NCBI GenBank assembly: GCA_016212515.1
Contig: JACRFZ010000117.1
Coordinates: 1 to 64,000 of the forward strand
Direction of reading: 5' to 3'
Length of the DNA stretch: 64,000 bases
From: Candidatus Melainabacteria bacterium
GTDB lineage: Bacteria; Cyanobacteriota; Vampirovibrionia; Obscuribacterales; Obscuribacteraceae
The notes beneath the pieces are model-generated. The model worked only from the letters and a program-made list of their open reading frames with translations, had not been told where the DNA came from and searched no databases. Positions 7,140-11,135 of this stretch are shown in pieces. Each line of letters starts with the position of its first letter. Positions within the stretch are counted from its first letter, which is position 1. A program made the translations under genes and the position numbers.

Positions 7140-9977
7140 TTAGAGCCGGCTCACCACATCGGCGCAGAAGCCACAGAGGTCCGCGTACTGGCTGTCTTTA
7201 CCGACATCGCCGGTATACTTCCAGCAGCGTGCGCACTTCTCGCCCTGAGCCCGGTAAGCAGCTACGGTCAGACCTTCTTCTGAAACAGTGGAAAGCGGCT
7301 CGGAAAGCCCTTCCTTGCCGGTACCATTGGAAGAGATATGAGCCCCGGAAGTGATAAAGACCGAAGCCAGATCTCCCTCAATCTTTCTGACCTTGTCGGC
7401 CTTTTCTTTATCGCCGAAAGACATGACCACGGTGGCTTCCAACGAGCTACCGATGCTGCGGGCAGCCCTTGCCTGCTCCAGCGCTTTGTTTACGGTCAGT
7501 CGCACATCGATAAGTTCAGACCAGTAGGCTCCGGCTTCTTTATCTTCGAAGTCGGGATTGACCTGAGGATAATCGGTCAAAAGCACCGAGGTTTGACCGC
7601 CGAAATAGGCTCTCAAAGGCTCGCTCATATGCTGCCAGATGTCTTCGGCCAGGTGCGGCGTCACCGGCGCCAGGAGACGCACCAGGGTATGCAGGGTGTG
7701 GGTGAGCACGGTCTGCACGGCCCTGCGTGACTCGTCTTTAGGATGGCAGGTATAGAGCCTGTCTTTGACGATATCGAAGTAGAAGGCGGAAAGATCGACG
7801 CCGCAGAAGTTCTGGAGCAGTTGATAATACTTGAAGAACTCAAAGCGATCGAAGTCTCTGGTTACCTCGGCCACCACTTCATTGAGGCGGTGCAAGACAA
7901 AACGATCCAGAGAAGAAAGGCTCTCTTTCTTGACCATGTCCCGGGCCGGATCAAAGTCGTGCAAGTTGCCGAGCAAGAAGCGGGCAGTGTTGCGCAGGCG
8001 GCGGTAAACATCGGCTAGCTGGGCCAGCATATTTTTACCGATGGGAATATCGTCGGTGTAGTTGACGGAAGCGACCCAGAGCCTCAACACATCGGCACCG
8101 TACTGCTTAATTACCTCGTCTGGTTCCACCACATTGCCCACCGACTTGGACATTTTCCGGCCGCTTTCGTCTACCACGAAACCGTGAGTAAGCACGGTCT
8201 TGTAGGGGGCGCGGTCGGAAACAGCCACGCTGGTCAAAAGGGAGGACTGGAACCAGCCGCGGTGCTGATCGGAACCTTCCAGGTAAAGCTCGCAAGGCGT
8301 ACCGCGCAACTCAGGTCTTTCGTCCAGCACAGCCGCATGGGTGACACCGGAGTCGAACCAGACATCCATGATGTCGGTCTCTCTGTCGAACTCTTTGCCG
8401 CCGCAATGGCCGCAACCTATATCTTTCAAGAAATAGCCAGGCTCTCTCTCCCACCAGGAATCAGAGCCCTCGGCGTCGAAAACCTTGGCCACGGCTTCGA
8501 TACTTTCTTCGCTCATAAGCGGCTTATGGCAGCCCTTACAATAGAAGACAGGGATGGGAACACCCCAGGCCCGCTGGCGGCTGATACACCAGTCGGAACG
8601 GTTCTCCACCATGTTGAAGATGCGGTTGCGTCCTGATGCAGGCAACCATTCAACGGCGTCGATGCACTCCAGGGCTCTCTTTCTAAAGCCCTCTACGGAT
8701 GCAAACCACTGTTCGGTGGCTCTGAAGATGAGGGGCTTCTTGCACCGCCAACAGTGCGGATAAGAATGGGAGAAGGTGGAATGCTGCAAGAGCACGCCTT
8801 TCTCTTTCAGGTGCTCGACCACGAGCGGATTGGCTTTGTCGAAGCGTTGACCTGCGAAAATACCGGCTTCCTCGGTAAAGATACCGCGGGAATCAACGGG
8901 AGAGAGAACACCAAGTTGGTAGACCTTACCAATCTCAAAGTCTTCAGGACCATGGCCGGGCGCCGTGTGCACACAGCCCGTACCGGCTTCGGCAGTAACG
9001 TGATCACCATTTATTACCCTTGAGAGACGGTCCATGAAAGGATGGCGACATTCAAGCAACTCCAGTTCTTTTCCAAGAGCCGTAGCCAGAACTTTCACAG
9101 CTTTCTCGGCCTTGCCGGCGGCATTCAGGAAAGCATTCTTGAGGCTCTCCGCCACCACCAGTACGTGGGGTTCGTCTTCCACCTGGAGGAATTCATAGAC
9201 GAAGTCAGGGTGCAATGCCACACCGAGGTTGGCGGGTAGGGTCCAGGGAGTTGTGGTCCAGATCACGAAGGCCACATCCTTATCTTGCACGGAAGCCGGC
9301 AACTTAGACTTGGAAGCGGCGTCCACCGCAAACTTGACGTAAATGGAGTTGGAAGTATGGTCAGCGTACTCCACTTCGGCTTCAGCCAAAGCGGTTTCAC
9401 AATTAGGGCACCAGGAGACGGACTTCAAACCTTTATAGAGGTAACCCTTGCCGGCCATTTTGCCGAAGACCCGCACCTGCTTAGCCTCGAAGTGCTGATC
9501 AAGGGTAATGTAAGGGCTCTGCCAGTGGCCCCAGACGCCCAGACGGCGGAAGTTGGCTTCCTGTCCTTTCAAATTGCTGAGGGCAAAGGCCCGGCAGCGC
9601 TGGCGCAGTTCCACCGGGGTCAAAGCGGCGCGACCGCCTTTAACGTCCTTCAAAACAGCGTTTTCAATGGGCAGTCCATGGCTGTCATAGCCCGGCACAT
9701 AAGGAGAGTAGAAGCCCTTCAAGCCCTTGTACTTGGTGACGATGTCCTTGAGCACTTTGTTCAAGGCCGTGCCGATGTGAATCTTGCTCGAAGACAGGTA
9801 AGGCGGTCCGTCATGGAGTACATACTTGGGCGCCGCTTCCCGGCGCTTCAAGCTGGCTTCGTATACACCGGTGTCGTCCCAGACCTTCTGAATCTCCAGT
9901 TCCCGAACGGCACTATTGGCTTTCATGGGAAATGCCGTTTGGGGCAGGTTCACACTATAGGTCGACTTCTCTTTCAT
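7140..9977 (-). CDS. ileS: Isoleucyl-tRNA synthetase
   Basis: 945 residues, full length. Class I signatures are HIGT at 67-70 (within SKIHIGTALNKVLKD) and KMSKS in DESGRKMSKSVGN near residue 610. The large CP1 editing domain lies between them (WTTTPWTLPANLGVA), followed by the anticodon-binding helices. The C-terminus has a zinc-binding pair, CARCWKYTG and CGFC. It charges tRNA-Ile and edits valine. The usual PYANG before HIGH is PYLSSS here. The start ATG at 9977 has GGAG upstream, immediately after a terminator hairpin, and the leader encodes an Ile-rich peptide (see separate entries), so expression is probably attenuated by charged tRNA-Ile. It is transcribed toward potC. Confidence 0.97.
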   Translation of the reverse strand: MKEKSTYSVNLPQTAFPMKANSAVRELEIQKVWDDTGVYEASLKRREAAPKYVLHDGPPYLSSSKIHIGTALNKVLKDIVTKYKGLKGFYSPYVPGYDSHGLPIENAVLKDVKGGRAALTPVELRQRCRAFALSNLKGQEANFRRLGVWGHWQSPYITLDQHFEAKQVRVFGKMAGKGYLYKGLKSVSWCPNCETALAEAEVEYADHTSNSIYVKFAVDAASKSKLPASVQDKDVAFVIWTTTPWTLPANLGVALHPDFVYEFLQVEDEPHVLVVAESLKNAFLNAAGKAEKAVKVLATALGKELELLECRHPFMDRLSRVINGDHVTAEAGTGCVHTAPGHGPEDFEIGKVYQLGVLSPVDSRGIFTEEAGIFAGQRFDKANPLVVEHLKEKGVLLQHSTFSHSYPHCWRCKKPLIFRATEQWFASVEGFRKRALECIDAVEWLPASGRNRIFNMVENRSDWCISRQRAWGVPIPVFYCKGCHKPLMSEESIEAVAKVFDAEGSDSWWEREPGYFLKDIGCGHCGGKEFDRETDIMDVWFDSGVTHAAVLDERPELRGTPCELYLEGSDQHRGWFQSSLLTSVAVSDRAPYKTVLTHGFVVDESGRKMSKSVGNVVEPDEVIKQYGADVLRLWVASVNYTDDIPIGKNMLAQLADVYRRLRNTARFLLGNLHDFDPARDMVKKESLSSLDRFVLHRLNEVVAEVTRDFDRFEFFKYYQLLQNFCGVDLSAFYFDIVKDRLYTCHPKDESRRAVQTVLTHTLHTLVRLLAPVTPHLAEDIWQHMSEPLRAYFGGQTSVLLTDYPQVNPDFEDKEAGAYWSELIDVRLTVNKALEQARAARSIGSSLEATVVMSFGDKEKADKVRKIEGDLASVFITSGAHISSNGTGKEGLSEPLSTVSEEGLTVAAYRAQGEKCARCWKYTGDVGKDSQYADLCGFCADVVSRL

Positions 9978-9994: not shown

Positions 9995-10020
9995 AAAAAC
10001 GCCAGCGCTTGGCGCCGGCG
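9995..10020 (-). terminator. Attenuator terminator in the ileS leader
   Basis: Read on the minus strand: CGCCGGCGC (10020-10012), loop CAA, GCGCTGGCG (10008-10000), then TTTTT (9999-9995). The nine-pair stem has one G-T wobble. Only 17 nt separate the T-run from the ileS ATG and that stretch holds the ribosome binding site, so there is no room for another promoter. There is no minus-strand gene upstream for it to end. It must therefore act inside the ileS leader. Confidence 0.8.
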
Positions 10021-10044
10021 GTGTCTTTCTACGACTACGCCAGC
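10014..10044 (-). promoter_or_regulatory. Alternative (antiterminator) pairing in the ileS leader
   Basis: GCTGGCG at 10044-10038 (minus strand) can pair with CGCCGGC at 10020-10014, the left arm of the terminator, giving seven pairs with one wobble and a 17-nt loop. GCTGGCG is identical to the end of the terminator's right arm, so the two structures exclude each other. The first arm begins four bases after the leader-peptide stop codon. A ribosome at the stop would mask it; one stalled earlier at the Ile codons would leave it free. Confidence 0.65.
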
Positions 10045-10048
10045 TTGA

Positions 10049-10087
10049 TTAGCATTCAATAATAATAGTCCGAATAATATTCCGCAC
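10049..10087 (-). CDS. Ile-rich leader peptide of ileS (putative)
   Basis: GTG at 10087 opens a 12-residue frame, MRNIIRTIIIEC, ending TAA at 10051-10049. Five of twelve codons are Ile, all ATT, in runs of two and three. A GAGGAG ribosome binding site (10102-10097) lies nine bases before the start; an earlier in-frame GTG at 10093 would add two residues but is only three bases from it. The peptide precedes the alternative hairpins of the ileS leader, as in his, trp or ilv attenuators. I infer that the ribosome stalls at Ile codons when charged tRNA-Ile is scarce, allowing read-through into ileS. It has no expected function as a protein. Confidence 0.7.
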   Translation of the reverse strand: MRNIIRTIIIEC

Positions 10088-10112
10088 TGACACAATCTCC
10101 TCGCCGCAGTTA

Positions 10113-10142
10113 AGGATAGAGCCGGGGAACCCCGGTCGTCAA
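10113..10142 (-). promoter_or_regulatory. Candidate ileS promoter with palindromic spacer
   Basis: Minus strand: TTGACG (10142-10137), 18-nt spacer, TATCCT (10118-10113). The spacer contains a perfect 14-bp palindrome CCGGGGTTCCCCGG (10135-10122), which could be an operator. Predicted transcription start is near 10106, a few bases before the leader-peptide ribosome binding site, giving a terminated leader RNA of about 110 nt. The rest of the 363-nt gap between ileS and the phosphatase gene (10143-10340) shows only a TAAAAT at 10286-10291 that may serve the plus-strand gene. Confidence 0.45.
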
Positions 10143-10340: not shown

Positions 10341-11135
10341 ATGGACAAACTGGAAAAGGTAGCCCGGGAAGCAGCACTGCGAGCCGGTGAACTGCAAAAA
10401 TCAAGGCTGGGTAAAATAAAGTCGCTTGATTACAAGAGCGCCTTTAACATCGTCACCGATGTTGACAAGGCAAGCGAAGCTTTGATCATCGAGACCCTCA
10501 CCCAGGAATATCCCGACGCCTGTTTTCTGGCCGAGGAAAGCGGCGAGTCGGGCAGTAAGTCCGGGCGCCGCTGGATCATCGATCCCCTCGACGGCACCAC
10601 CAATTTCGCCCACTCATATCCGTTTTTCTGCGTGTCCATAGCCTGCGAAGAAGACGGTCAGGTGGTGCTGGGCGTGGTTTATAACGCCGTCGCCTCGGAG
10701 ATGTTCGTGGCCGCAAAGGGACAGGGTGCCACTTTGAACGGAGAAAAAATAAGTGTCTCAATGCGCACAAGCCTGGAAACCAGTTTGCTTGCCACCGGCT
10801 TCCCGCCTGATACCTTGAAGAGCGTGCACCACAACATGGACAGCTTCCGAGCCATCACCAATATGTGCCACGGCGTCAGACGGGACGGCTCAGCCGCTCT
10901 TGATCTTTGCTTTGTAGCCAGCGGCCGCCTCGATGGTTTCTGGGAAAGAAAACTTTCCGCCTGGGACGTGGCAGCCGGTGCTTTAATCGTGGAAGAGGCG
11001 GGCGGCAAAGTAAGCAACTTGGAAGACGGCCCGCTGGATATGATGAGCGGTCATATTCTTGCCACCAACGGCAAAATTCACGAAGAAGTAGTGAAAGCCC
11101 TGGCGGCCTCAAGAACTGAGACCGTAGCAAGCTGA
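10341..11135 (+). CDS. suhB: Inositol-monophosphatase family protein (SuhB-like)
   Basis: 264 residues with the full metal-binding set of the Li+-sensitive, Mg2+-dependent phosphatase superfamily: Glu65 in LAEESGE, the DPLDGTTNF block at 81-89 (Asp81, Asp84) and WDVAAGALIVEEAGG (Asp209). Members hydrolyse inositol-1-phosphate or related sugar phosphates; SuhB in proteobacteria also binds the transcription machinery. The exact substrate cannot be read from the sequence. Divergent from ileS across a 363-nt region. Ends six bases before the convergent glycosyltransferase gene. Confidence 0.9.
   Translation: MDKLEKVAREAALRAGELQKSRLGKIKSLDYKSAFNIVTDVDKASEALIIETLTQEYPDACFLAEESGESGSKSGRRWIIDPLDGTTNFAHSYPFFCVSIACEEDGQVVLGVVYNAVASEMFVAAKGQGATLNGEKISVSMRTSLETSLLATGFPPDTLKSVHHNMDSFRAITNMCHGVRRDGSAALDLCFVASGRLDGFWERKLSAWDVAAGALIVEEAGGKVSNLEDGPLDMMSGHILATNGKIHEEVVKALAASRTETVAS

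What the first reader, a model, noticed from the sequence alone, without database searches (positions are those of the whole stretch)
9995..10142. Ile-rich leader peptide and mutually exclusive hairpins: an attenuator for ileS
On the minus strand, directly upstream of ileS, the order is: promoter-like TTGACG/TATCCT, GAGGAG ribosome binding site, a GTG-started 12-codon frame MRNIIRTIIIEC with five ATT (Ile) codons and a TAA stop, GCTGGCG starting four bases after the stop, then CGCCGGCGC CAA GCGCTGGCG TTTTT. GCTGGCG can pair with the left arm of the terminator, so antiterminator and terminator exclude each other. The geometry matches classical ribosome-mediated attenuation: low Ile-tRNA stalls the ribosome, frees GCTGGCG and allows read-through into ileS. 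Such leaders are known for ilv, his and trp operons. An Ile leader peptide controlling the isoleucyl-tRNA synthetase itself is not an arrangement I know; ileS is typically controlled by T-boxes in Firmicutes, and I found no T-box here.
Basis: partly seen in the sequence, partly recalled or inferred. Interest (0 to 1): 0.85.

Follow-up and report, generated by a model that had tools for sequence, protein, structure and literature searches.

The report
Isoleucine-sensing attenuator before ileS gene
In front of the gene for the enzyme that loads isoleucine onto its tRNA, these uncultured relatives of cyanobacteria carry a tiny isoleucine-rich reading frame and two competing RNA hairpins, conserved across 15 genera, that very probably let the cell make more of the enzyme when loaded isoleucine-tRNA runs short; the principle is known, the gene and the bacterial group are new for it.

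Summary
Upstream of ileS on the minus strand lie a TTGACG-18-TATCCT promoter, a 12- or 14-codon frame with five ATT codons, a stop, an antiterminator arm 4 nt later, and a U-tailed terminator that shares its left arm with the antiterminator.

The element recurs in 33 of 47 ileS upstreams of the same bacterial family (15 of 23 genera tested). An Ile run usually sits 3-5 codons before the stop, the antiterminator arm starts 0-10 nt after it, and both hairpins are kept despite sequence change. The same detector found 0 in 2,820 shuffled upstreams. A covariance model hits one place per genome, always 17-100 nt upstream of ileS, and finds nothing convincing outside the family.

Where the family has ilvD, a separate Ile/Leu/Val leader precedes it (18 of 19).

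The mechanism is known for pheST, Streptomyces leuS/trpS2 and Bacillus hisS. An 'ileS leader CDS' has been named in Caulobacter without a mechanism. So this is a new member of a known kind: new for ileS as a described attenuator, and new for Melainabacteria. Two differences from trp: no conserved 1:2 protector hairpin, and patchy loss. There are no expression data.

The parts
10113..10142 (-). sigma-70-like promoter TTGACG-18-TATCCT; start of transcription expected near 10106
   Evidence: similar TTGAC-17/18-TAT sites at comparable places in most attenuator-bearing relatives
10049..10093 (-). leader peptide frame, 12 or 14 codons (GTG at 10087 or 10093), five ATT codons, stop TAA 10051-10049; GAGGAG ribosome binding site just upstream
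   Evidence: Ile codons conserved before the stop in 33 loci
10038..10044 (-). antiterminator 5' arm GCTGGCG, 4 nt after the stop
10023..10035 (-). inner antiterminator helix GTC (10035-10033) with GAC (10025-10023)
   Evidence: fold; the corresponding inner helix varies in sequence but is kept in many relatives
10000..10020 (-). terminator hairpin CGCCGGCGC-CAA-GCGCTGGCG; its left arm (10020-10012) is also the 3' arm of the antiterminator
   Evidence: covariation
9995..9999 (-). U tract of the terminator
7140..9977 (-). ileS, isoleucine--tRNA ligase, 945 aa
   Evidence: TIGR00392 955 bits against cut-off 621

Best explanation
A ribosome-mediated transcription attenuator that makes expression of ileS respond to charged tRNA-Ile. 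RNA polymerase starts near 10106 and transcribes a short Ile-rich frame, which a ribosome follows. With enough Ile-tRNA the ribosome reaches the stop and covers the GCTGGCG arm directly behind it; the left terminator arm stays free, the terminator forms and the RNA ends near 9995. With too little Ile-tRNA the ribosome waits on the Ile codons 3-5 before the stop, its front just short of the arm; GCTGGCG pairs with CGCCGGC, the terminator cannot form and ileS is transcribed. Shown here: the sequence parts, their conservation, the mutually exclusive pairings and their covariation, and the exclusive link to ileS. Inferred: promoter use, translation of the frame, termination, and the response to Ile. 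In detail it differs from the E. coli trp type: no conserved protector (1:2) hairpin, so without translation read-through rather than termination is expected.
For: 33 of 47 family upstreams carry the full set, 15 genera; 0 of 2,820 shuffled upstreams; with the same detector for the other 19 amino acids 0-4 loci each. Ile codons at positions -3/-4/-5 from the stop in 25, 28 and 25 of 33 loci, using ATT 83, ATC 21, ATA 6, i.e. the residue is kept across synonymous changes. The antiterminator is stronger than with shuffled spacers: combined p about 1e-15 over 15 genera. Terminator: 5 of 8 pairs with two-sided changes, covariation score 0.452 against 0.209 shuffled; antiterminator core 90% paired against 25-57% when slid. 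The arm begins 0-10 nt after the stop in all 33. Covariance model: one hit per genome in 33 of 53 genomes of the order, all 17-100 nt upstream of ileS, and a single hit in the window's own 6.1 Mb genome. The gene on the other side is divergent, so the terminator cannot serve an upstream gene. The same family has an Ile/Leu/Val leader before ilvD-ilvC, so coupling-based attenuation seems to be in use there, with codons that match each operon's need.
Against: No transcript, term-seq or ribosome-profiling data. 14 of 47 relatives lack the element, and one of these, G040/L133, has a terminator without the Ile frame. Some leaders hold only two adjacent Ile codons (L029, L030, L031, L134). The start codon is ambiguous (two GTG in the window's copy; weak ribosome binding sites in some relatives). 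The antiterminator core is nearly invariant, so covariation there is modest. Detector and alignment criteria were chosen after viewing the sequences, and the covariance model was built from loci it mostly finds again.
Confidence: 0.91

Rival explanations
1. The hairpin is an ordinary or constitutive terminator (for stray transcription, or a fixed damper of ileS), and the short Ile frame is incidental.
For: One relative (G040/L133) keeps the terminator without an Ile frame.
Against: Ile codons are kept through synonymous changes at a fixed distance from stop and arm in 15 genera; antiterminator combined p about 1e-15; no co-directional upstream gene exists to be terminated.
Confidence: 0.04
2. 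A tRNA-binding T-box or another riboswitch senses tRNA-Ile or isoleucine directly.
For: ileS is a frequent T-box target; T-box motifs were seen upstream of many Firmicutes ileS genes in the comparison set.
Against: No Rfam match at gathering level in the window; only weak unrelated matches at low stringency; the leader is about 110 nt with no recognised T-box, while an Ile frame is conserved.
Confidence: 0.02
3. The leader frame acts on ileS translation (re-initiation or coupling) and not on transcription.
For: Short frames close to a main gene can raise translation by re-initiation (PMC4833913).
Against: The frame's stop is 71 nt from ileS in the window, with a strong terminator with U tract in between; terminator-to-start distances in the 33 loci range from 17 to 91 nt, which does not fit coupling; antiterminator and terminator pairings are both kept.
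Confidence: 0.03

Closest known systems
pheST attenuator of Escherichia coli (Fayat 1983, Springer 1985, Mechulam 1987; cited in PMC4082710)
   Same: A synthetase operon controlled by attenuation that responds to its own tRNA; cognate codons in a leader peptide (the last point from own knowledge)
   Different: Phe instead of Ile, gammaproteobacteria; no shared sequence tested
Candidate attenuators upstream of leuS and trpS2 in Streptomyces (PMC1262725)
   Same: Leader peptide with cognate codons, antiterminator and terminator before a synthetase gene; LeuS belongs to the same class of synthetases as IleS
   Different: Other amino acids, Actinobacteria; in that work ileS had translational T-boxes, not leader peptides
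His leader peptide upstream of hisS/hisZ in bacilli (PMC2965389)
   Same: Leader-peptide control of a synthetase gene outside Proteobacteria, replacing a T-box
   Different: His, Firmicutes; convergent origin suggested there
'ileS leader CDS' CCNA_03934 of Caulobacter crescentus (PMC4117421)
   Same: A translated small frame in front of ileS
   Different: Named only in a figure legend and strain list as a negative control; no Ile codons, hairpins or mechanism described; sequence not examined here
ilv leader attenuators (ilvL of E. coli; the family's own ilvD-ilvC leaders)
   Same: Ile-containing leader peptide and terminator/antiterminator
   Different: ilv leaders mix Ile, Leu and Val (15/22/15%) and control biosynthesis; the ileS leaders carry Ile runs (42% Ile in the last 8 codons)
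T-box riboswitch on ileS (Firmicutes, Actinobacteria)
   Same: Same gene and same signal (charging of tRNA-Ile)
   Different: Direct tRNA binding, no leader peptide; no T-box here

Membership tests
[quoted passage not shown]
   Frame and cognate Ile cluster conserved in 33 of 47 loci; translation itself not shown
Ribosome-mediated transcription attenuator | Intrinsic terminator between leader frame and structural gene | tested here: met
Ribosome-mediated transcription attenuator | Antiterminator that shares a strand with the terminator | tested here: met
Ribosome-mediated transcription attenuator | Stop codon and control codons placed so that a ribosome at the stop, but not one at the control codons, masks the antiterminator arm | tested here: met
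   Arm 0-10 nt after the stop, Ile codons mostly 3-5 before it; ribosome footprint from general knowledge
Ribosome-mediated transcription attenuator | Promoter upstream of the leader frame | tested here: inconclusive
   Promoter-like site in the window and, by a similar pattern, in most relatives; use not shown
Ribosome-mediated transcription attenuator | Termination falls when the cognate charged tRNA is scarce | not testable with these tools
   Needs an experiment
trp-type attenuator with 1:2 protector/pause hairpin | Pairing of the antiterminator arm with the leader frame | tested here: not met
   Duplex energies no better than shuffled upstream sequence over 15 genera, combined p 0.26
T-box riboswitch | Rfam T-box match | tested here: not met

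The most novel reading that the evidence does not exclude
The first described leader-peptide attenuator dedicated to an isoleucyl-tRNA synthetase and the first in the cyanobacterial phylum (non-photosynthetic Melainabacteria lineage). It is a minimal two-hairpin form with read-through as the default when the leader is not translated. It works beside a second, mixed Ile/Leu/Val attenuator on the ilv operon in many of the same genomes, and survives in genomes that lack ilvD and so probably cannot make isoleucine.
Probability: 0.6. Interest if true: 0.55.

Novelty: new member of a known kind. Interest (0 to 1): 0.5.

Why it matters
It extends ribosome-mediated attenuation to a gene usually handled by T-boxes. 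It also extends it to a deep branch next to the cyanobacteria, a phylum for which a 2016 survey found no reliable attenuation data (PMC4833913). The paired ileS (Ile runs) and ilv (Ile/Leu/Val) leaders in one family make a natural test of how codon choice sets amino acid specificity. It supports the view that leader-peptide attenuators arise or replace other sensors repeatedly on synthetase genes. It also gives a handle on isoleucine shortage in uncultured bacteria, some of which appear unable to make isoleucine.

Tried and rejected
T-box or other Rfam family: none. A conserved 1:2 protector hairpin: the window's full-leader fold suggested pairing of the GTG region with the arm, but it is not conserved. 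Same attenuator elsewhere in the genome: none by covariance model; a loose pattern search gave 47 hits against 13 for the reversed control pattern, and the only one that looked like an attenuator (C22:16357-16404) appears to lie inside a coding gene. Leader attenuators before valS, metG or cysS in this genome: none seen; leuS was not properly located and stays untested. Link between ileS attenuator and loss of Ile synthesis (ilvD): no correlation across genera. Same element in other families of the class, or in 79 of 80 ileS loci of other GTDB species (the 80th, L038, appears to be the named record of family member G043): none. Literature search with 'ribosome-mediated attenuation' plus synthetase: no hit.

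Full report
What is there. Folding gives the terminator segment at -19.8 kcal/mol (z -3.6) and, when the right arm is not yet made, the antiterminator GCUGGCG..GUC/GAC..CGCCGGC. The isolated hairpins are nearly equal, -16.4 and -16.0 kcal/mol, so the outcome can be set by the ribosome. The neighbouring gene (inositol-phosphatase-like, 10341-11135) points away, so the terminator cannot belong to an upstream gene.

Relatives. The window lies in a 6.1 Mb genome whose family contains a record labelled Candidatus Melainabacteria (L038 appears to be the named record of G043; the name Obscuribacteraceae would be my inference). IleS was found in 48 of 50 genomes of the family, and 47 upstream regions in 23 genera were read. 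33 of them in 15 genera hold the complete arrangement. Leader frames include MSTLLVSAIII*, MFSRAAIIITS*, MYTSIIIPT*, MLVRIIIISS*, MKDAPRLLGGIIIICL* and MSTLLISSNSDTSRSVQRAAIIITRK*. What is shared is an Ile run (ATT 83, ATC 21, ATA 6 codons in the last eight), usually 3-5 codons before the stop, and an antiterminator arm 0-10 nt after the stop. The same detector found 0 of 2,820 shuffled upstreams, 0-4 loci for each of the other amino acids, and only this site in the 64-kb window on either strand.

Structure. Each of the 33 spacers pairs with its terminator's left arm. Against shuffled spacers the pairing is stronger with a combined p of about 1e-15 over 15 genera. Inner helices differ in sequence (GTC/GAC, GCAG/CTGC, GCG/CGC) yet pair. 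On a 24-sequence alignment the terminator has 5 of 8 pairs with two-sided changes, 96.9% of cells paired, covariation 0.452 against 0.209 shuffled. The antiterminator core has 90.4% of cells paired against 25-57% when slid by 1-3 columns, but is so conserved that covariation is modest. A covariance model finds one place in the own genome and one per genome in 33 of 53 genomes of the order, all 17-100 nt upstream of ileS. In 240 genomes of the class there is no further match at E of 0.01 or better. Seventy-nine other GTDB ileS upstreams and a sample of those of other families in the class lack it. 24 of the 33 sequences built the model, so the recovery is partly circular; the absence of hits elsewhere is not.

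Evolution. On an IleS tree the label needs 8 changes against 16.9 for shuffled labels. The pattern fits an early origin in the family and repeated losses, for example in genera g8, g24 and g12 and in one member of g15. G040 (g21) keeps a terminator without an Ile frame.

Mechanism. With plentiful Ile-tRNA the ribosome reaches the stop and masks the arm, so the terminator forms. With scarce Ile-tRNA it waits on the Ile codons with its leading edge near the stop, the arm is free, the antiterminator forms and ileS is transcribed. The geometry in the 33 loci fits the ribosome's known footprint (own knowledge). A conserved 1:2 protector hairpin, as in trp, is not found (combined p 0.26), so unlike trp the untranslated leader should favour read-through. 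Promoter use, translation, termination and the response to Ile are inferred.

Support from a second system. In 18 of 19 ilvD upstream regions of the family (the 19th is cut by a contig end) there is a different leader frame rich in Ile, Leu and Val (for example MFKIALIQVAFILLVLIMYQRCGLPV*); in most of them a CCCCGCACC...GGTGCGGGG-T terminator follows. The family thus seems to use ribosome-mediated attenuation with codons matched to the controlled genes: 42% Ile, 6% Leu, 4% Val for ileS, against 15/22/15% for ilv. The window's own genome and its two genus mates lack ilvD, and this genome has no acetolactate synthase above the curated cut-off, so isoleucine is probably taken up. Across genera, ilvD and the ileS attenuator are not linked.

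What is known. Leader-peptide attenuation of synthetase genes is established or proposed for pheST in E. coli (references in PMC4082710), leuS and trpS2 in Streptomyces (PMC1262725) and hisS/hisZ in bacilli (PMC2965389). ileS is known from T-boxes (PMC1262725). The one hint at an ileS leader frame I found is the label 'ileS leader CDS (CCNA_03934)' in Caulobacter (PMC4117421), without description of codons or hairpins. A 2016 survey states that there was no reliable data for attenuation in cyanobacteria (PMC4833913). The library holds open-access papers only, so prior description elsewhere cannot be excluded.

Verdict. Real, conserved and very probably functional; a new member of a known kind in a new gene and lineage.

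Noticed in passing
L248-L268 (upstream of ilvD in 10 genera, e.g. L252, L256, L265, L268): The ilvD-ilvC operon of the same family has its own leader frame with mixed Ile/Leu/Val codons; in most copies a CCCCGCACC/GGTGCGGGG-like terminator follows, so it is very probably a second attenuator.
   Followed up: partly
G000, G030, G031 (genus of the window): No ilvD and only an IlvC-like protein of the weaker paralogue type; the window's genome has no IlvB over the curated cut-off. Probable Ile/Val auxotrophy in a 5.5-6.1 Mb genome.
   Followed up: partly
L133 (G040): ileS upstream with promoter and terminator hairpin but no Ile frame and a very short leader: a possible remnant of the attenuator in a fragmented genome.
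   Followed up: no
Upstreams of ileS, e.g. L030, L032, L033, L118, L127, L128, L133: A recurring motif like AATAAGAATCNTTAACGG shortly before the -35 box, also in relatives that lost the attenuator; possibly an operator or UP-like element.
   Followed up: no
L017, L019, L027 (genus g8): ileS upstreams without the attenuator share another similar stretch, TTAATTARAACTACATAATTG...TGTAATATTATT; probably a promoter, function not examined.
   Followed up: no
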